The notes below the pieces were generated by a model that had not been told where the DNA came from, made no database searches, and worked only from the letters and a program-made list of their open reading frames with translations. The position numbers and the translations under genes were made by a program. From the NCBI GenBank assembly GCA_013213785.1, contig JABSPZ010000006.1, positions 310,001 to 374,000 on the forward strand: DNA of 64,000 bases, in the 5' to 3' direction. Below are positions 57,309-64,000 of the stretch, in pieces. The number at the start of each line of letters is the position of its first letter. The stretch's first letter is position 1. The DNA comes from Henriciella sp. Lineage in GTDB: Bacteria; Pseudomonadota; Alphaproteobacteria; Caulobacterales; Hyphomonadaceae.

Positions 57309-57416
57309 ATGGTGGATCACAATGATCCACACTTGAACCAATTCTTTGAGAACTTAGCAGCTTGGGAAGAACAACTAAAGGACGAAAATATCGACTTTGA
57401 GGAGCTGGGACTATGA
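57309..57416 (+). CDS. Small ORF at the start of the mobilization module
   Basis: 35 residues (MVDHNDPHLNQFFENLAAWE then acidic). Its TGA overlaps the ATG of mobC by 4 nt, and its amphipathic, acidic composition looks protein-like. Ribosome site is weak (AAGAAAA). It may be an accessory relaxosome peptide, or only a coupling ORF for mobC translation. Low certainty. Confidence 0.4.
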   Translation: MVDHNDPHLNQFFENLAAWEEQLKDENIDFEELGL

Positions 57417-57874
57417 GGCGGCCCGGTGGAACCAAAGTTTATGAGACATTCTCCCATGCAGCAGCGGGTGATGTCTATATCCGGCCATCCCGTAAACGAG
57501 AGAAGCCCTCGGGGCATCGTTTGTCCGTTCGATTAAATGAAGCTGAGCATGCCTATCTGCTTACCCAGGCAGGCGTTCAAACTCTAAGTAATTACGTGCG
57601 AGATGTGCTTCTCGGTGAGTTTGCATCGAACTCACGATCACGTCCATTGAAGCGCAAACGCTCCCCGAAGACGGATACTAAAGCAGTCGCGAAGGCATTA
57701 GCTTTACTCGGTCAGTCTCGCTTAGCTGCAAACGTCAATCAAATTGCGAAACTCGCCCATATGGGCGCTCTGCCGGTCACAGATGATTTAACTGAGGAGC
57801 TGCACTCCGCCTGCGCTGATATCGCAGCGATGCGAGCAGCTCTAATGAAAGCGCTGCATGGAGCTTCAAAGTGA
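57413..57874 (+). CDS. mobC: Plasmid mobilization relaxosome protein MobC
   Basis: 153 residues. The central KREKPSGHRLSVRLNEAEHAYLLTQAGVQTLSNYVRDVLLG is a ribbon-helix-helix-like region of MobC proteins, and LAANVNQIAKLAHMGALP is the conserved MobC C-terminal motif. MobC binds oriT and assists strand opening by the relaxase. It overlaps the relaxase start (GTG overlapping TGA) by 4 nt. Confidence 0.85.
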   Translation: MRRPGGTKVYETFSHAAAGDVYIRPSRKREKPSGHRLSVRLNEAEHAYLLTQAGVQTLSNYVRDVLLGEFASNSRSRPLKRKRSPKTDTKAVAKALALLGQSRLAANVNQIAKLAHMGALPVTDDLTEELHSACADIAAMRAALMKALHGASK

Positions 57875-59097
57875 TCTTGGTCGGCAATTCACGTGGCGGA
57901 GCGAGAGAGCTCGCGGCGCATCTGCTCAAAGATGAAAATGATCATGTTGAGATACATGAGCTACGTGGTTTTGCTTCAGAAGGTTTGAAGGATGCCCTGT
58001 CGGAAATTCAAGCGATCAGCAAAGGTACGCAATGCCGTCAATTTATGTTCGCGCTTTCTATGAACCCGCCAGAGGAGGAGACTGTTAGCATTGAAGTCTT
58101 TGAGTCAGCCATCGAGCAAATCGAGTTGCGCCTTGGTTTAGTAGACCAACCTCGAGCCATCGTCTTCCACGAGAAAGAGGGGCGTCGTCATGCTCATGTT
58201 GTTTGGTCACGCATAAAGGCCGATGAGATGAAAGCAATCCATTTACCCTACTTTAAGCGAAAACTGAATTCTATCGCGAGGGATTTATACCTAGAGCACG
58301 ATTGGCAAATGCCAGACGGGTTTCGTGACCCGAGCTTAAGTAACCCCCTGAACTTCACGCACGCCGAATGGCAGCAAGCTAAACGCTCATATATCGATCC
58401 GAGAGAGATCAAACAGGTATTCCAAAAGGCTTGGGAAAGATCAGACTCCAAGGCCGCGTTCATTGCAGCACTAGAAGACAAAGGTTATCGCCTTGCCCGG
58501 GGGAGGAAGAGCTTTGTCGCTGTCGATGTCCATGGTGAAATCTACTCTGTTGCCAGGCAAGCGAAGGTCAAAGTGCGTGATCTTAAAGCGCGCTTGGGCG
58601 ACCCGAATGACTTGCCAAGCATTGAGTCTGTTCAGGCTGAGTACAAAGCAGACATGGCTCAAAAGCTCGGGGCATTCCAAAGAGACTTGATCGCTCAATC
58701 GTCGAGACACGCCTATGATTTCAAAAAGCGCCACACCGCACTAATTGATCGTCAAAGGGAAGAGCGTCTGCGCCTTTCAGAGAATCAAAAGACGAGATGG
58801 ATACAAGAAACGAAAAGGCGTCAGTCGCGTTTCCGGAACGGCCTTAAAGGCCTTTGGGATCGGTTACGGGGTGAACATGGCCGGATTGCCAAACAGAACA
58901 CTGAAGAAGCCGCGTACGCTTTGAACCGCGATCACCGCGAAAAGGCTGATCTATCCAAGCGGCATCTCTCCGAAAAGAGGTCCTTGAAAGCTCAAGTTCA
59001 AACCCTGCGTGAGGAATATGCCGAGCAGCACCGAACTCTAAGTCAAGATATTGAGCACTTACGAGCTCGACTAAGTTCTCCAACCTTGGAACCATAG
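57871..59097 (+). CDS. Relaxase/mobilization nuclease without an N-terminal tyrosine
   Basis: 408 residues, GTG start. The HUH metal motif HEKEGRRHAHVVWSR (H100, H107, H109) and the N-terminal NSRGGARELAAHLLK with NDHVEIHELRGF match the relaxase family (PF03432) found on rhizobial/rhodobacterial mobile elements. No Tyr occurs before residue 127, downstream of the HUH motif. His17, His25 and His29 are candidates for a nucleophile, as His is used in MOBV enzymes. The C-terminal ~150 residues are highly charged and helical. Confidence 0.85.
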   Translation: MILVGNSRGGARELAAHLLKDENDHVEIHELRGFASEGLKDALSEIQAISKGTQCRQFMFALSMNPPEEETVSIEVFESAIEQIELRLGLVDQPRAIVFHEKEGRRHAHVVWSRIKADEMKAIHLPYFKRKLNSIARDLYLEHDWQMPDGFRDPSLSNPLNFTHAEWQQAKRSYIDPREIKQVFQKAWERSDSKAAFIAALEDKGYRLARGRKSFVAVDVHGEIYSVARQAKVKVRDLKARLGDPNDLPSIESVQAEYKADMAQKLGAFQRDLIAQSSRHAYDFKKRHTALIDRQREERLRLSENQKTRWIQETKRRQSRFRNGLKGLWDRLRGEHGRIAKQNTEEAAYALNRDHREKADLSKRHLSEKRSLKAQVQTLREEYAEQHRTLSQDIEHLRARLSSPTLEP

Positions 59098-59100
59098 ACG

Positions 59101-59379
59101 ATGTCACCTGAAGATAAGAAACGGCTGGAACGCGAAGCAGAGATCGCCAAGGCTACCCGCGGGCCGAATTATTCCAGACTTCTCGAGTCGATCTCACGCA
59201 ACAAAGCGGAATATCAAAAACGTAAACAGGCTCAGGAAGTAGTGAATGCCAAAGCTCGCATAAGACTGGTCCATGGTTACGTCCCACAAGACACAAGTGC
59301 TGCGCAGCGCTTAGATGCGTCCAGAAGACAGACTACCGCTCGTGTGCACGCCATGCGCCGGTCTGCGCCTAAAATCTAA
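59101..59379 (+). CDS. Small hypothetical protein of the mobilization module
   Basis: 92 residues, very basic (many Lys/Arg) and helical (EDKKRLEREAEIAKATRG, RNKAEYQKRKQAQEVV). It starts 3 nt after the relaxase stop. It could be a DNA-binding accessory. Family unknown. Confidence 0.5.
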   Translation: MSPEDKKRLEREAEIAKATRGPNYSRLLESISRNKAEYQKRKQAQEVVNAKARIRLVHGYVPQDTSAAQRLDASRRQTTARVHAMRRSAPKI

Positions 59380-59387
59380 TGTAGACT

Positions 59388-59527
59388 GGGTTCCATACAG
59401 GAATTCCTGCCTCGTGGCGAACAGCGGGTGTGCAAACGGAAGGACAGAATCGTTGGCGGGCGCAGGCGCTGGCGCCGAGCCTCGGGAGACCAGCGATTCT
59501 GATCATAGTGCGCCGAGGGTGGAACCC
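59388..59527 (+). other. Highly self-complementary element (possible structured RNA or DNA site)
   Basis: Nested inverted repeats fold the stretch into one compact structure. The outer arm GGGTTCCA (59388-59395) pairs with TGGAACCC (59520-59527). CCTC-GT-GGCG (59410-59419) pairs with CGCCGAGG (59511-59518). CAGAATCGTTGG (59445-59456) pairs with CCAGCGATTCTG (59490-59501, one wobble). A 12-nt palindrome CAGGAATTCCTG sits inside the outer arm, and a GC-rich apical part (GGCGC...GCGCC) closes it. It contains no protein-like ORF. It lies between the mobilization genes and the peptide precursor. Not recognised as attC, RNase P, tmRNA or SRP RNA. Confidence 0.65.
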
Positions 59528-59690
59528 TAAGACTTTTGAAATTCAATAAGGAGCCCAGACCCAAGAAGTTTGTGCTTTCCAATTATCCTTTGTCGGTTAT
59601 TGTAACACCAGCGATCAAGGTAGTGGTGAAGCGCTACCCGCGTCGTTGTCGGCGTTAGTGCCGAAGTGAAAAGATATGTGGAGATATCAA
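59528..59690 (+). promoter_or_regulatory. Leader region of precursor 1 with two hairpins, the first with a GTGAAG loop
   Basis: Hairpin 1 (59619-59638) is GGTAGTG-GTGAAG-CGCTACC, a 7-bp stem with one wobble. Hairpin 2 (59649-59664) is TCGGC-GTTAGT-GCCGA. They are followed by ATGTGGAGATATCAA just before the start codon. The minus-strand precursor has a hairpin with the identical loop and nearly the same start context. No strong promoter is visible in this stretch. Confidence 0.6.
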
Positions 59691-59924
59691 ATGCGTGACA
59701 TTAAACACGACGAATTGGATTTGGTGGGCGGAGGACGTAAGGTCAGCCTATTTTTTGGATTTCAGCCCGGTAACCCGCGCGGTGAGATTCTGCCTGAAAT
59801 TCAAGATTTGCAGATTCAAACAGGAAACAGAGCGATCACGCGCGGTGGACTTCCGAACTTGTTCGGATTGCGTGGATCAACCAGAGCCGATTGGTCGATC
59901 AGTCACCTAAGCGACCTGTTTTAG
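59691..59924 (+). CDS. Double-glycine leader peptide precursor 1 (microcin-like)
   Basis: 77 residues from ATG 59691. The leader MRDIKHDELDLVGGG fits the double-glycine type cut by C39 peptidase-ABC exporters. The core (~62 residues) has no Cys and is rich in Gly, Leu and Arg (NRAITRGGLPNLFG, DWSISHLSDLF). The ribosome site is GGAG at 59680. It lies upstream of the HlyD-type adaptor in the same direction. It could be a microcin or a signalling peptide. Confidence 0.7.
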   Translation: MRDIKHDELDLVGGGRKVSLFFGFQPGNPRGEILPEIQDLQIQTGNRAITRGGLPNLFGLRGSTRADWSISHLSDLF

Positions 59925-59956
59925 TTCTACGGAAGAAACTCAGTTTAAATTTAAGA

Positions 59957-60011
59957 GGCGTGTGGCTCAGCAGTTTGGGGTTTTCTAACCCCGAGTGAAG
60001 AAGCACACGCC
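59957..60011 (+). other. Nested inverted repeat between precursor 1 and the adaptor gene
   Basis: GGCGTGTG (59957-59964) pairs with CACACGCC (60004-60011), and inside it GGGGTT-TTCT-AACCCC (59977-59992) forms a second hairpin. There is no strong T run, so it looks like an attenuator, processing site or partial terminator that lets more precursor than adaptor mRNA accumulate (inference). Confidence 0.5.
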
Positions 60012-60045
60012 CATCAGCTTTTAACCCAACTGGTGGAGCACTTGC

Positions 60046-61287
60046 ATGTCCTCAGATTTGTTTCGTGAGGAGGCGCTGGAGTTTCAGAGCGCTTCCAATT
60101 CTCGTTTCGGAAAACCCACAGGAGTGTTGCCGCCCTCTTGGGTATTGATCACCCTATTTTTGGCGGCCTTCATGGCGGCACTTATCATTTTCCTGCTTTC
60201 GGTAGATTTCGCTCGCAAGGAAACCGTGCGAGGTAAGCTGCGTGTAGATGGAGCAGAGGCTAAGCTATATGCCCTTGAGCCTGGCCTCATTACCAAAGTG
60301 ATGGTGGAAGATGGCCAGGCGGTGAATGCGGGTGATCCAATCGCCGAGATCACTTCTGAGCGTTATATGAGCGATGGTGGCGCGCTAAGTGAAGCCACGT
60401 TAAAGCAGCTGGAGCGGGAGCAGACGACGCTTCAGCGCCGCAAGGCTGCCATTGAAACCGCATCGGACTTAAGCATCCGCGCCGCTGAACAACGATACAA
60501 TGATGCCAAGCGACAAGAGCGTGAACTAAAAGACCAACTCACCGTCGTGAAAAGACGCTTAGAGATTGCTCGAAATCGCGCAAAGGATGCTGAACAGTTC
60601 TTGGCGGAACAGTTGATCGCAGAACCGCAACTCAATGAGCGTCTAGAGGCAGCGGCCTCGCTGGAACAAATGGTGCTTCAAACCAACGGTCAAGTAAACG
60701 AAGCCGTTGCGGCCCAATCCCGCGCGGCGCTCGAAAAGCGACAGCTGCAAGCCAACCGAGATCGAGACTTAGCTGACATTGATCAACGCCTGGAGCAGAT
60801 GAACGCGCAGATCCAACGCGCGGATGCAGAAACGGTCCATATTGTTCGCTCGCCGATCGAAGGCAGGATCACGGGACTTCAGGCGAGAACTGGGGAACAG
60901 GCCCTTAATAGCATTCCGCTCGGGATCGTCTTACCTGTGGACAGCGAGCTCATCGCGGAAGTTTATCTACCGTCTAGAGCAATTGGCTTCGTAGAGCCTG
61001 GGCAGATTGTGAAGCTCCAATACGATGCGTTCCCATATCAGAAATTCGGAATTGCGTTTGGTGAAATACAGGGCGTTGCGAGCACGGCTCAGTTACCGCA
61101 AGAGCTGAATGTGGCAAGTCAAACGAGTGAGCCGCTCTACCGAGTATCCATAACTCTAGCTGAGCAAACTGTTGAGGCGTTCTCTAGAGAAATGCCTTTG
61201 CAAACGGGAATGGAATTTACGGCAGATATTGTTCTGGAAAACCGTAGACTCCTCGAGTGGTTATTGGAGCCGTTGGCGAGCAAATAG
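60046..61287 (+). CDS. HlyD/CvaA-family periplasmic adaptor for peptide export
   Basis: 413 residues. One N-terminal membrane helix (VLITLFLAAFMAALIIFLLS, ~34-53), a lipoyl/beta-barrel segment (LEPGLITKVMVEDGQAVNAGDPI), a long coiled coil (~115-270) and the second lipoyl half (SPIEGRITGLQARTGE). This is the layout of adaptors that join C39-type ABC exporters to TolC. GGAG precedes the ATG. Together with the ABC transporter on the other strand it should export the double-glycine peptides. Confidence 0.9.
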   Translation: MSSDLFREEALEFQSASNSRFGKPTGVLPPSWVLITLFLAAFMAALIIFLLSVDFARKETVRGKLRVDGAEAKLYALEPGLITKVMVEDGQAVNAGDPIAEITSERYMSDGGALSEATLKQLEREQTTLQRRKAAIETASDLSIRAAEQRYNDAKRQERELKDQLTVVKRRLEIARNRAKDAEQFLAEQLIAEPQLNERLEAAASLEQMVLQTNGQVNEAVAAQSRAALEKRQLQANRDRDLADIDQRLEQMNAQIQRADAETVHIVRSPIEGRITGLQARTGEQALNSIPLGIVLPVDSELIAEVYLPSRAIGFVEPGQIVKLQYDAFPYQKFGIAFGEIQGVASTAQLPQELNVASQTSEPLYRVSITLAEQTVEAFSREMPLQTGMEFTADIVLENRRLLEWLLEPLASK

Positions 61288-61510
61288 GCGCAAAAGTACT
61301 CATTGATGTCGCTGCTAGGCGCTTTCGGCCTGAATATTCCAAACGGCCTGAAAACTAGCTTTCTTGGAATAAATGCCCGCACTTTGAGCACCAATAATTC
61401 CAATGTTTTTTGCTGCAAAAAACCTTTGAGAACAAGATCCGGAGGGCTAACGTCGTTAGGTGCGAGAAATCGCTAACCCCTGCTGACGTGGTATGTTTCT
61501 CCAGGGAAAT
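61288..61510. other. Convergent intergenic region with repeats
   Basis: This lies between the ends of the adaptor gene (plus) and the small secreted protein gene (minus). It holds the direct repeat CGGCCTGAA (61326, 61344), an inverted repeat TATTCCAA/TTGGAATA (61335-61342, 61364-61371) and a 19-bp palindrome GTTTTTTGCTGCAAAAAAC (61405-61423). No gene is seen. One or more of these may act as terminators for the two transcripts. Confidence 0.5.
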
Positions 61511-61912
61511 TCACCCAACGGCATTGGGTTGGCATTGGTTAATGTTATCTTGCACTACCGTGAAGTGCCTTTCCCTGCCGTTGCTGCTTATAGTTATGCC
61601 TTGGAGTTGGGTCGATGCATACTCAGCTCGAATTTCAAAACACTCTTCTTTTATTTCGTGTTCGACACAAAGACGTTTGCCATCGAACGAAAGAACTTGT
61701 CCACTCACTTTATAACCATCTATATCCCAAATCATATTTCCAACTGAGTCGAAGCACAGTGACCAGTATGACGCTAAAGCGATACTGGTCCCAGGTACCG
61801 TTGCTTCGCTAAATGTGCCGTAGAAAAAAGGTCTTGGTTCTTGGGCCACCGAAGCGGCACCGATCAACAGACCTATCACAGAAATTATGATACTGCGCGA
61901 AGTTGAATTCAT
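61511..61912 (-). CDS. Small secreted protein of the peptide locus
   Basis: 133 residues from ATG 61912. Signal peptide (SIIISVIGLLIGAASVAQ) then a compact beta-rich domain with four Cys residues (SLCFDS, RLCVEH, EECFEI, NQCQPN), probably disulfide-bonded in the periplasm. It is the last minus-strand gene, 35 bp after the two-helix membrane protein. It could contribute to immunity or be cargo. No recognised family. Confidence 0.55.
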   Translation of the reverse strand: MNSTSRSIIISVIGLLIGAASVAQEPRPFFYGTFSEATVPGTSIALASYWSLCFDSVGNMIWDIDGYKVSGQVLSFDGKRLCVEHEIKEECFEIRAEYASTQLQGITISSNGRERHFTVVQDNINQCQPNAVG

Positions 61913-61947
61913 AGCATTTTCTCTAGAAGAGAGAGACGAAAGTGATT

Positions 61948-62106
61948 TCATCCCCTTCCATTGGAAGATATGAGTGACAGAATTGTAAGGGCGACGCCAA
62001 GCGTCGCCCCTACCACGTAAACACCGCTAAGCTCTTGAAACATCCATAAGTATACGGTGCCAGCGATCAGTGCCAAGCATATAAATATGGTGATCTTGAG
62101 CTTCAT
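61948..62106 (-). CDS. Small two-helix membrane protein next to precursor 2 (candidate immunity protein)
   Basis: 52 residues that start 4 nt after the precursor 2 stop. A basic start (MKLK) leads into a hydrophobic helix (ITIFICLALIAGTVYLWMF), a short polar turn (QELSG) and a second helix (VYVVGATLGVALTILSLI) ending in SSNGRG. Size, topology and position match immunity proteins of bacteriocin operons. The ribosome site is weak (GGAC), so translation is probably coupled to the precursor. Immunity function is inference. Confidence 0.65.
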   Translation of the reverse strand: MKLKITIFICLALIAGTVYLWMFQELSGVYVVGATLGVALTILSLISSNGRG

Positions 62107-62110
62107 TGAA

Positions 62111-62560
62111 CTAGTCCAGAACTGAATTGCAGTATGCTGCGGCAGTAGTCACAACCATGCTCACACCTTGCGTTACAGGACCAGCTCCTACAGAACCGAG
62201 CCAAATCAGGTCACATGCTGTACTTCCCCAATCCACGTCATCGCCAGGAGTGTTCCCAGTTGTTTCGCCGTGTACCGTTCCATTGATGACATAGTTGCCA
62301 CTCGGAAGTTGACACGGCCCGAAATCACTGGCGCCGCAGGCGCCGACTTGCATTTGGCCAGTAGAAATCATCCCATGAACTGCCCCGCTGTTATTGTTGC
62401 CGAGGTAACCCGTATTTGCGTTACCAAGCGGGTCAGCTAGACCGATAACTGGCGCACCTCCTGGATCGTTAACAGATCGGCCGCCGTCGGTGACGCGATG
62501 ATCGAGCCAACCCGTTCCACCTGCTACAGTTCCAATTTCTGAAGTTTTTAGTTCTCTCAT
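62111..62560 (-). CDS. Double-glycine leader peptide precursor 2 (large, Cys-containing)
   Basis: 149 residues from ATG 62560, which has GGAG eight bases upstream. The leader MRELKTSEIGTVAGG is of the microcin class (compare MRELTLNEI-type leaders) and ends in GG. The ~134-residue core is Gly/Asn/Ser-rich with four Cys (GACGASDFGPCQ, STACDLIW, AAYCNSVLD) and a hydrophobic C-terminal stretch (GPVTQGVSMVVTTAAAY). It is larger than most class IIb microcins. It precedes the small membrane protein and follows the ABC transporter. Confidence 0.75.
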   Translation of the reverse strand: MRELKTSEIGTVAGGTGWLDHRVTDGGRSVNDPGGAPVIGLADPLGNANTGYLGNNNSGAVHGMISTGQMQVGACGASDFGPCQLPSGNYVINGTVHGETTGNTPGDDVDWGSTACDLIWLGSVGAGPVTQGVSMVVTTAAAYCNSVLD

Positions 62561-62593
62561 TTGCATATCTCCACATGCAGTTTTCAATAAAAT

Positions 62594-62646
62594 GGGGATT
62601 TGCAAAGCTTGCTTATCCCCTCTCAAAACCGGTGCTTCACCACCGG
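62594..62646 (-). promoter_or_regulatory. Leader region of precursor 2 with two hairpins, the first with a GTGAAG loop
   Basis: On the minus strand the first hairpin is CCGGTG-GTGAAG-CACCGG followed by TTTT (62646-62625). The second is GGGGAT with ATCCCC, inner GCAA/TTGC and a symmetric TT/TT internal loop (62620-62594). The start context ATGTGGAGATATGCAAATG is nearly that of precursor 1. The first hairpin plus T run could be an attenuator. Confidence 0.6.
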
Positions 62647-62667
62647 ATGCCCAAAGGCATGAATGAG

Positions 62668-62695
62668 AGGTTAACCAAGACAAAAACTGTGTCAA
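62668..62695 (-). promoter_or_regulatory. Probable sigma-70 promoter of precursor 2
   Basis: On the minus strand a perfect -35 TTGACA (62695-62690) is followed after 16 bp by TAACCT (62673-62668). It lies between the ABC transporter stop and the precursor leader, so the precursor can be transcribed separately from the transporter. Confidence 0.55.
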
Positions 62696-62729
62696 CTCAG
62701 ATATTTATGAAAGAACAATAATGGAACAT

Positions 62730-64000
62730 TTATCTGTGAAAAAGTTTGAAAAATCTACTTTTCGCGCTCTCAAGAAGTGCACTCACACCCTCAAGTTGAA
62801 TTATTCCATTCTGTGCGGGTGTAGCTTCACAAATCGCGGTCGCTGAGAGATCTTTATTTTCAATATCGACATTTGATTTGACCGTCGCTTGTTTTACTAC
62901 ATCCACGGGCCGAGGCTTAAGCTCAATCGGCCGCAGCTGCCCTTGATGCAGCGCAAAAACCTTATCCGCTGCTGCCAAAGTTTCAGGTCGATGCGCCGCG
63001 ATGATGCGGGTTATGGATAGTTTCTTTAGCTGAGCATTGATATGGCGCTCCGTATTCACATCGAGCGCGCTTGTCCCCTCATCCATCACAAGCAATCGAG
63101 GCTTTCGATAGAGCGCCCGCGCCAGCATCACCCGTTGTTGTTGCCCACCAGAGAGCGTGGTTCCCATATCGCCAACGAGGGATCGATATCCCATAGGCAT
63201 CGCTTCAATATCATCATGGATTGCGGCGATCCGTGCAACCTCCCGAATACGGTCTCGGTCGGGTTTCTCGTCGAAAAGGCTAATGTTCTCCTCGATAGAT
63301 CCACCGAGCAGCGTGTCGTCCTGCATGACGACACCCATCTGCTGACGCAAGCTCGATATCCCCCATTTGCTGGCTTCAAGGCCGTCATAGAGGATCTTTC
63401 CGTGTGATGGCTCGTAGAGCCCCAGGATCAATCGAAGCAATGTTGATTTTCCTTCGCCCGATGGGGCTGCCAGCGCTACGAATTCACCGGGCTCAACTTC
63501 AAGGTTGGCCCCTTTCAGGATGTCTGTTTCAAACTTGGCGTATCTAAAGTGCAAGTTTTGAAGTGTGATCCGGCCTTCAAGCTCTCGATTGGAAGGCGGC
63601 GCTTGCAGGCCTGCTTCCTTCTTATGGAGCGCGATATCGGACACGCGCTCTAGGTGCACATCAAGCAGCTTGAAATTCACATAGGTTTCAAGCAGCGCCA
63701 TGAGCTTTTGTTCGAATTGTCCTTTGTAAGCGATAAAGGCTGTGATCATCCCGATGGTCATCGCGCCGCCGATCGCGTTACTTGCGGCCAGATATATAAC
63801 CAGGATGTTAGACAGCCCCATCAAGGTTTGGCTCACCGCGCCATATCCAATGTTGACATTGCCCATGCGGATTTGCGCATTCAGTGTATCAGCCGCGAGA
63901 TTGCGCCAGAGGCCTTCGCGCTCATTCTCTATGCCTGCCACTTTAACGGTCTGCATAGCGCGCAAGGTCTCGAGGAACTTGGTGTTCTCTTTGGCGTCGG
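62730..64000 (-). CDS. CvaB-like peptide exporter ABC transporter (N-terminus outside window)
   Basis: The frame is open to the window edge, so the start and the expected N-terminal C39 peptidase are not visible. Seen are the end of the membrane domain (from AKENTKFLETLRAMQTVK), then the nucleotide-binding domain: Walker A APSGEGKST, signature LSGGQQQRVMLARAL, Walker B RLLVMDEGTSALD and His switch AAHRPE. A ~75-residue C-terminal tail follows. The FLETLRxxQT segment is typical of colicin V-type exporters. It should cut the GG leaders and export the precursors with the HlyD adaptor. Confidence 0.88.
   Translation of the reverse strand, partial: DAKENTKFLETLRAMQTVKVAGIENEREGLWRNLAADTLNAQIRMGNVNIGYGAVSQTLMGLSNILVIYLAASNAIGGAMTIGMITAFIAYKGQFEQKLMALLETYVNFKLLDVHLERVSDIALHKKEAGLQAPPSNRELEGRITLQNLHFRYAKFETDILKGANLEVEPGEFVALAAPSGEGKSTLLRLILGLYEPSHGKILYDGLEASKWGISSLRQQMGVVMQDDTLLGGSIEENISLFDEKPDRDRIREVARIAAIHDDIEAMPMGYRSLVGDMGTTLSGGQQQRVMLARALYRKPRLLVMDEGTSALDVNTERHINAQLKKLSITRIIAAHRPETLAAADKVFALHQGQLRPIELKPRPVDVVKQATVKSNVDIENKDLSATAICEATPAQNGIIQLEGVSALLESAKSRFFKLFHR

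What the first reader, a model, noticed from the sequence alone, without database searches (positions are those of the whole stretch)
57309..64000. Microcin-like double-glycine peptide locus beside a mobilization module
Two precursor genes with GG leaders, a HlyD/CvaA-type adaptor, a CvaB-like ABC exporter, a tiny two-helix membrane protein and a small secreted protein sit together and follow mobC and a relaxase. The precursors are on opposite strands, one of 77 residues without Cys and one of 149 residues with four Cys. I do not recognise either core. The seen parts are the leaders, adaptor and exporter motifs; the antibacterial role is inference.
Basis: partly seen in the sequence, partly recalled or inferred. 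Interest (0 to 1): 0.88.

Follow-up and report, generated by a model that had tools for sequence, protein, structure and literature searches.

The report
Peptide-export cassette with exchangeable cargo
A bacterium, probably a marine Henriciella, carries a gene cassette that looks built to export a toxin-like protein, has a second copy of the same exporter with different cargo, and has matching RNA hairpins in front of its genes that were not found in the RNA-family library searched; that it kills or regulates anything is still untested.

Summary
The exporter, cut at base 64000, continues to a 760-aa protein with an N-terminal C39 peptidase (E 9.8e-35) and the Cys/His/Asp triad at CvaB spacing. 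Precursors A (77 aa) and B (149 aa), the HlyD-type adaptor, a 52-aa two-helix protein and a 133-aa probably secreted protein are present. "Microcin-like" is fair, not a proven membership.

(2) B, a two-helix ORF and a secreted protein recur in the same order in Ponticaulis, suggesting a toxin plus protection module. (3) All three transcripts (A-adaptor, B, exporter) of both cassettes carry GGUGAAGC, usually as a hairpin with loop GUGAAG, then AUGUGGAGA, which in A and B holds the ribosome-binding site. First-hairpin stems covary. Rfam shows no family; a distant relative of the B leader precedes a GA-leader peptide beside an ATP-grasp maturase in another genome of the order.

Best explanation: a mobile, RNA-controlled bacteriocin cassette with interchangeable toxin modules. 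Killing and regulation are inferred.

The parts
57413..57874 (+). MobC-like mobilization protein (153 aa)
   Evidence: PF05713 E 2e-4, 22.2 bits, just below the 23.2 cut-off
57871..59097 (+). MobA/VirD2-type relaxase (408 aa)
   Evidence: PF03432 E 1.8e-12
59101..59379 (+). small ORF after the relaxase (92 aa), unknown
   Evidence: no family over its cut-off
59619..59638 (+). RNA hairpin 1 of the A-adaptor leader: 7-bp stem, hexaloop GUGAAG
   Evidence: one of only two GUGAAG hairpins with a stem of 6 bp or more in the 64-kb window; stem covaries with those of B and exporter
59673..59688 (+). hairpin 2 of the A leader, 5-bp stem, loop GUGGAG holding the ribosome-binding site
   Evidence: AUGUGGAGA invariant in 8 leaders
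59691..59924 (+). precursor A, GG leader plus about 62-aa basic core (pI 10.6), no Cys
   Evidence: relatives only in this genome's two cassettes among 150 genomes
60046..61287 (+). HlyD/CvaA-type membrane-fusion adaptor (413 aa)
   Evidence: HlyD_3 E 2.3e-13; match in 18 of 150 genomes, own included
61511..61912 (-). probably secreted protein (133 aa), candidate periplasmic protection or accessory protein
   Evidence: hydrophobic N-terminus; Ponticaulis relative at 27% over 92 residues, E 4e-10 for that single comparison
61948..62106 (-). two-helix membrane protein (52 aa), candidate immunity protein
   Evidence: two hydrophobic segments; a 54-aa two-helix ORF holds the same place in Ponticaulis, without detectable sequence similarity
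62111..62560 (-). precursor B, GG leader plus 134-aa four-Cys core, the variable cargo (candidate toxin)
   Evidence: relatives in G045 (Ponticaulis koreensis), G030 and G029
62561..62675 (-). structured 5' leader of B
   Evidence: folding z -5.1 (relatives -4.0 and -3.7); consensus structure; model R1 hits 3 of 378 genomes, own included
62629..62646 (-). hairpin 1 of the B leader: CCGGUG/CACCGG stem, loop GUGAAG
62562..62579 (-). hairpin 2 of the B leader: UGCAU/AUGCA stem, GGAG in the loop
62730..64000 (-). C39-peptidase ABC exporter, C-terminal 422 of 760 aa (the rest lies right of the window, to G000:C2:375012)

Best explanation
A mobile bacteriocin cassette that works like a class II microcin system and has exchangeable cargo. 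The C39-ABC exporter and the HlyD adaptor, probably with a TolC-like channel encoded elsewhere, cut the leaders of precursors A and B after GG and secrete the cores. Core B is the toxin. It has four Cys and a hydrophobic, Gly/Ala-rich C-terminal third that probably acts on membranes. The 52-aa two-helix protein, the 133-aa secreted protein or both protect the producer. The exporter and adaptor arms are kept while the module between them (B core plus protection genes) is replaced, so related elements carry different toxins. Expression of all three transcripts is tuned after transcription by paired 5'-leader elements (loops GUGAAG and GUGGAG). In A and B the second one contains the ribosome-binding site, and in the B leaders the 5' end can also pair with the first codons, so a binding factor or refolding would switch translation. 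Shown by sequence: gene content, the two cassettes and their borders, the recurring gene order, the conserved leader motifs and the covarying stem of hairpin 1. Inferred: toxicity, immunity, membrane action, exchange as the cause of the difference, and the regulatory effect.
For: C39 exporter with C23/H96/D112 invariant in 5 aligned exporters; spacing 73 and 16 as in CvaB C32/H105/D121 (passage of PMC9746304). HlyD adaptor; outer-membrane efflux family PF02321, 9 domain matches in five ORFs of the genome. Second cassette on G000:C17 with 88.1% and 84.5% identical arms and no blastn match between them at E <= 1e-3; the two B cores are no more alike than shuffled sequence (508 of 1000 shuffles as good; the weak whole-protein match, E 0.006, comes from the leader). 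Order B, two-helix ORF, secreted protein repeated in Ponticaulis (window and Ponticaulis B cores: 0 of 1000 shuffles as good). Relatives of the exporter carry other GG-leader cargo. Leader RNA. Mobility genes.
Against: No toxin or bacteriocin family over its cut-off for A or B in Pfam or NCBIfam, none for B in PHROGs (A was not in the PHROGs call). The two-helix ORFs of Henriciella and Ponticaulis share no detectable sequence. H97 and E99 of B, conserved in Ponticaulis, are missing in the G029 relative, so no catalytic site is indicated. The G029 relative has no ATG/GTG/TTG where its leader should start. Structure models are useless for B (pLDDT 31) and weak for the secreted protein (pLDDT 44, no PDB match at E <= 0.001). 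Stem covariation rests on three leader types; C17_A has two broken pairs of six and each Parvularcula leader one; two of the five covariation measures are reached by 41 and 131 of 500 shuffles. The A leaders do not fold much better than shuffles (z -2.1 and -0.9), and in C17_A hairpin 2 has almost no stem. In C17_B and Parv_B the start codon is only partly paired.
Confidence: 0.64

Rival explanations
1. The exported peptides are signals, not toxins: A (and perhaps B) is a pheromone secreted by the C39 exporter, used by the mobile element to sense its own carriers.
For: A is small, basic and kept at 86% identity between the two cassettes while the cargo changes. Its leader shares the RNA motif with those of the exporter and B.
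Against: B is large, differs completely between the cassettes and sits with candidate membrane and secreted protection genes, as toxins do. By eye I recognised no sensor kinase among the ORFs listed, but I did not search for one.
Confidence: 0.14
2. The cargo proteins are exported surface or secreted effectors with no antibacterial role (adhesion, aggregation, action on eukaryotic neighbours), and the small genes are chaperones or accessories.
For: Cargo of relatives is large and varied: a RadC/JAB-like HNHP motif (E about 0.01, below cut-off), HEIAH/HEVGH motifs, Asp-rich cores.
Against: In the cassettes looked at closely the cargo mostly has a neighbouring gene that looks exported or membrane-bound (by eye), whole modules differ between otherwise matching cassettes, and the adaptor is sporadic (18 of 150 genomes). 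This fits toxin and protection pairs better, but is not proof.
Confidence: 0.11
3. The conserved hairpins are DNA features used for recombination or replication (extruded cruciforms), not RNA regulators; they mark where the cargo is swapped.
For: The B hairpin lies close to the cargo border, and small serine resolvases lie on the same stretches.
Against: The exporter and A hairpins are not at exchange borders. The second element carries the ribosome-binding site of A and B. The loop is constant while the stem sequence changes, which fits recognition of a folded single strand.
Confidence: 0.11

Closest known systems
Class II microcin systems (microcin V type)
   Same: GG-leader precursor, C39-ABC exporter with the triad at the same spacing, membrane-fusion adaptor, TolC-type channel not in the cluster, a 52-aa neighbour within the 51-216 aa range of confirmed immunity proteins (PMC9746304, passages read)
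   Different: Core B is 13.3 kDa and acidic; two precursors on opposite strands; whole-module difference between two cassettes of one genome; shared leader-RNA motif; alphaproteobacterial host
Cdz contact-dependent bacteriocin of Caulobacter crescentus (PMC5380434, passages read)
   Same: Alphaproteobacterial type I secretion, two small exported proteins, a membrane immunity protein (three predicted helices), toxins more variable than the secretion genes
   Different: CdzC and CdzD are 86 and 84 aa glycine-zipper proteins; here A and B are unlike each other and on opposite strands, and no glycine-zipper family matched, although B's tail is Gly/Ala-rich
Polymorphic toxin systems (PMC3482391, two passages read)
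   Same: Conserved delivery part with variable toxin and protection cargo (general idea recalled)
   Different: The difference starts just after the start codon of a short precursor, not as a C-terminal domain of one long protein (recalled contrast); no recognised toxin domain in the window
ATP-grasp ribosomal peptide loci (MvdC/MvdD/GRASP type)
   Same: In genome G572 a related 5' leader precedes a GA-leader ORF next to an ATP-grasp maturase-like gene
   Different: None of the 20 proteins scanned around the Henriciella cassettes matched an ATP-grasp family; G572 keeps the stems and hairpin 2 but its first loop is CUUUGU

Membership tests
class II microcin system | precursor with GG or GA leader | tested here: met
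   A and B leaders read directly
class II microcin system | C39-peptidase ABC exporter with catalytic triad | tested here: met
   PF03412 E 9.8e-35; C23, H96, D112 invariant in 5 exporters, spacing as CvaB
class II microcin system | membrane-fusion adaptor | tested here: met
   HlyD_3 E 2.3e-13
class II microcin system | TolC-type outer-membrane channel | tested here: inconclusive
   PF02321 has 9 domain matches in five ORFs of the genome; which one serves this exporter is unknown
class II microcin system | mature core under about 10 kDa (limit recalled) | tested here: not met
   core B 13.3 kDa; core A 6.9 kDa would fit
class II microcin system | cognate immunity protein | tested here: inconclusive
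   52-aa two-helix ORF next to B, positional counterpart in Ponticaulis, no sequence similarity
class II microcin system | antibacterial activity | not testable with these tools
   needs a killing assay
Cdz system | small (about 5-10 kDa) glycine-zipper toxins | tested here: not met
   no glycine-zipper family for A or B at E <= 0.1 in Pfam or E <= 1 in NCBIfam; B core is 13.3 kDa
Cdz system | killing needs cell contact | not testable with these tools
   needs co-culture
polymorphic toxin system | conserved delivery part with different toxin plus protection cargo | tested here: inconclusive
   two cassettes in one genome, arms 88.1% and 84.5% identical, cargo without similarity beyond the leader; that the cargo is toxin plus protection is inferred
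polymorphic toxin system | recognised toxin domain | tested here: not met
CsrA/RsmA-controlled leader | GGA in the hairpin loops (recalled) and a csrA gene in the genome | tested here: not met
   first loop is GUGAAG; PF02599 has 0 matches in the genome
any Rfam 15 family | covariance-model match in the leader regions | tested here: not met
   no match in L003, L004 or L040 at E <= 2; window 59400-62800 at E <= 5 gives two matches far below gathering score, one (SNORA7, E 4.5, 16.3 against 100 bits) lying over the B leader

The most novel reading that the evidence does not exclude
The cassette carries a cis-acting RNA element not in Rfam: twin elements with GUGRAG loops in front of every transcript (adaptor, toxin and exporter). 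A trans-acting protein or small RNA reads them to switch on toxin and exporter translation together, with the second hairpin and a helix closing the start codon as the off state. The element travels with the cassette, and a related leader precedes a precursor of another peptide class (next to an ATP-grasp maturase), which would make it a more general switch for double-glycine peptides in these Alphaproteobacteria.
Probability: 0.42. Interest if true: 0.78.

Novelty: new variant of a known kind. Interest (0 to 1): 0.6.

Why it matters
One genome holds two copies of the same exporter and adaptor with different cargo and sharp borders, a direct snapshot of toxin-module exchange if the cargo is toxic. 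The shared leader motif gives a testable link between RNA control and bacteriocin export, and a sequence handle for finding cassettes whose peptides belong to no known family.

Tried and rejected
Catalytic reading of B: H97 and E99 are conserved with Ponticaulis, but the G029 relative lacks them while keeping four Cys and CQLP.G; a JAB-like or other enzyme reading was dropped. Structure prediction of B (pLDDT 31) and of the secreted protein (pLDDT 44) gave nothing usable.

Lysozyme-like reading of the Sphingomonas cargo in L045: no Pfam or PDB match, not claimed. A first impression that the L068 cargo resembles a polymorphic-toxin domain found no Pfam match, not claimed.

CsrA control: loop 1 lacks GGA and the genome has no csrA match. 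Known RNA family: none. Terminator reading of the exporter hairpin: by eye no T-run follows it; the terminator scan was not run.

Wider spread of the leader: the loose two-part pattern hits 24 of 150 genomes (control, pattern read backwards: 4 of 150). In the own genome 6 of 7 hits are cassette leaders; the hits in other genomes I read only in the listing, not one by one. The second-hairpin pattern with up to 1 mismatch hits 1 of 190 class genomes, the own one. Two viral-contig hits lie in a phage-type ORF. Model R2 hits 4 of 188 relatives of G572: G572 itself and three weak ones (G800, G148, G612) in whose stretches I saw no GG-leader ORF at the place. The other C39 exporter of G572 and two of G704 (apparently the Parvularcula genome, same contig coordinates and score) showed no such element in front. 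B-family model: 8 of 398 genomes of the order; I accept 4 (own, G030, G045, G029) and dropped 4 weak ones, E 2.5e-4 to 0.0098, after looking at the places. In the class sample 2 of 385: own, and one dropped (G186, E 0.006).

Plasmid searches: no relative of B at E <= 0.1; exporter: 869 records, all under 60% identity; B leader: one 37-base chance-level match at E 0.1; exporter leader: none.

Papers: 'Henriciella' with 'bacteriocin' 0 papers. One search (bacteriocin, untranslated region, riboswitch, double-glycine leader, at least 3 of 4) found 30 papers, of which 8 were listed; none of those 8 is about such a leader by title and abstract start. Searches gave listings only, apart from passages read in PMC5380434, PMC9746304, PMC3482391 and PMC6393860. 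No paper was read whole, and most subscription journals are not held, so 'not in print' is not claimed.
Full report
Setting. The window is bases 310001-374000 of contig C2 of a 3.36-Mb genome. Its same-genus relative G009 has a 25129-base contig of the same length as the Henriciella aquimarina record that encodes the nearest exporter from a named isolate (72%); a Parvularcula MAG has an 84% one. The host is therefore probably a Henriciella (Alphaproteobacteria, Hyphomonadaceae; taxonomy). No tool names it.

Anatomy. Left to right: mobC-like and relaxase genes, precursor A and the HlyD adaptor on the + strand, then on the - strand a 133-aa probably secreted protein, a 52-aa two-helix protein, precursor B and the exporter. 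The exporter is cut by the window but complete in the genome: 760 aa with C39 peptidase, membrane and ATPase domains. C23, H96 and D112 are invariant in five aligned exporters and have the spacing given for CvaB's triad (passage of PMC9746304). Five ORFs of the genome hold outer-membrane efflux domains.

A second cassette. The genome search gives one other C39 exporter, on contig C17. DNA comparison of the two regions gives exactly two homologous blocks: exporter plus leaders down to the first 14 bases of gene B (88.1%), and the A leader through the adaptor stop codon (84.5%). Between them blastn finds nothing at E <= 1e-3. C17 has there a 131-aa precursor with an Asp-rich core, a 392-aa protein with two DTG motifs, a hydrophobic N-terminus and a weak PDZ match, and a 79-aa protein. 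The two B proteins match weakly as wholes (E 0.006), but this is the leader: the cores score like shuffled sequence (508 of 1000 shuffles as good). C17 also has a large serine recombinase beside a lipoyl-ligase-type gene and a tRNA-Leu, and a conjugative coupling protein of the T4SS-DNA_transf family. Small resolvases lie under 1 kb from the C17 exporter, next to B in Ponticaulis, and 7 kb from the window's exporter. Both cassettes therefore sit among mobile-element genes.

The window's cargo module. In Ponticaulis the order B, two-helix ORF (54 aa), secreted protein is the same. The secreted proteins are related (27% over 92 residues, E 4e-10 for that comparison); the two-helix ORFs are not detectably so. 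The shared part of B is C..S...G.CQLP.G..VI.G, then DW and DL, before a hydrophobic Gly/Ala-rich tail; the window and G029 have four Cys, Ponticaulis two. G029 reads RALTEAEMEMVSGG in frame before its core but has no ATG, GTG or TTG at the expected start, so it may be non-functional or start otherwise. A disulfide-held, membrane-active core is my inference. A has relatives only in this genome's two cassettes among 150 genomes.

Cargo of related exporters. The adaptor matches in 18 of 150 genomes, own included. Near related exporters in Hyphomonadaceae and Sphingomonadales, GG-leader ORFs are about 56-290 aa long and of many kinds: a RadC/JAB-like HNHP motif in H. aquimarina (E about 0.01, below cut-off), HEIAH and HEVGH motifs in Sphingomonas naasensis and Sphingosinicella (read from the sequence; Peptidase_M91 only E 0.13), a Gly-rich tail in G033 (Gly-zipper E 0.017, below cut-off) with a 69-aa hydrophobic neighbour. 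In more distant gammaproteobacterial loci the automatic leader search mostly shows small, often Gly-rich cores (79 loci, 45 ORFs, several clearly not precursors). Many loci gave no leader ORF at all, so this is a survey, not a census.

The leader RNA. In front of each of the three transcripts stand GGUGAAGC and, 24-58 nt later, AUGUGGAGA: A, B and exporter leaders of both Henriciella cassettes and the B and exporter leaders of the Parvularcula contig, 8 of 8 leaders looked at; that contig shows no A gene. H. aquimarina, Ponticaulis, Hirschia and G033 lack the motif in front of their precursors, so it is confined to the closest cassettes. The first element forms a hairpin with loop GUGAAG. Its stems differ between leader types yet stay paired: 90.5% of cells, 4 of 6 pairs with changes on both sides, covariation score above all 500 shuffles and all slid versions; the number of such pairs is reached by 41 and the number of pair types by 131 of 500 shuffles. 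Caveats: there are only three leader types, and the set was gathered by its loop, so loop identity is not itself evidence. C17_A has only four unbroken pairs. Elsewhere, a GUGAAG loop on a stem of 6 bp or more occurs 4 times in 3.54 Mb (both strands of 92 other loci, some overlapping); in the 64-kb window it occurs exactly twice, in the A and B leaders. Folding z-scores are -5.1, -4.0 and -3.7 for the B leaders, -2.1 and -0.9 for the A leaders (7 and 39 of 200 shuffles as good), and -5.1 to -6.1 for the exporter leaders. In the B leaders the 5' CUCUC stretch pairs with the first codons in the best fold; freeing the start region costs 8.1, 4.1 and 4.4 kcal/mol, but the start codon itself is firmly paired only in the window. 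In C2_B and C17_B the alternative pairs the same stretch with an upstream GAGAG. This is switch-like on paper only. It might also explain why the first 14 bases of gene B belong to the conserved arm.

Spread of the leader. A model of the three B leaders (R1) hits 3 of 378 genomes of the order: the own genome (two copies), G704 (apparently the Parvularcula genome) and G572 at E 2.5e-10. In G572 it precedes a GA-leader ORF next to a gene matching ATP-grasp peptide maturases (GRASP_SAV_5884 E 7.9e-71, below that model's cut-off). Two outer pairs of the small first stem change on both sides there (41 of 500 shuffles reach this), but the GUGAAG loop is replaced by CUUUGU. This is the main reason to think of a more general element, and also the main limit, because it is one locus. 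No Rfam family reaches its threshold, and no csrA was found in the genome.

Verdict. The export system is a variant of the class II microcin/Cdz kind with differing cargo modules. B does not meet the recalled size limit of class II microcins, so it is called microcin-like. The RNA element is the most surprising part. Toxicity, protection and RNA control remain to be tested.

Noticed in passing
L026:10378-11133 and L040:6434-7231: Fic/DOC-domain proteins (E 5.9e-9 and 8.2e-12) lie directly downstream of the adaptor in Henriciella aquimarina and Parvularcula, a possible modifier or second cargo; not seen in the window's cassette.
   Followed up: partly
L004:9175-10353 (G000:C17): Protein with two DTG motifs and a weak PDZ match (E 0.0025, below cut-off) beside cargo B'; might be a protease acting on, or protecting against, B'.
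   Followed up: partly
L004:13007-15661 (G000:C17): Protein matching the candidate defence family PDC-S06 (E 1.1e-199), close to the second cassette.
   Followed up: partly
L003:9913-13858 (right of the window): Three neighbouring genes, one with an NPHP3_N/NACHT-type ATPase domain (E 2.4e-9), downstream of the exporter region; PADLOC gave only a weak PtuA match (E 0.0011) for one of them.
   Followed up: partly
L003:8109-8133 -, exporter leader: The second element is followed by GGAG, six bases, TTG TGA (a possible start codon followed at once by a stop), the same in all three exporter leaders, about 100 bases before the exporter start.
   Followed up: no
L160:6725-6809 (G000:C17): tRNA-Leu overlaps the 3' end of a 561-aa serine recombinase ORF, a likely integration site of the element carrying the second cassette.
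   Followed up: partly
L158 (G029:C319) 492-935 -: B relative without a nearby exporter or adaptor in the 6.4-kb contig (by eye) and without a usual start codon: perhaps an orphan or decayed cargo.
   Followed up: partly
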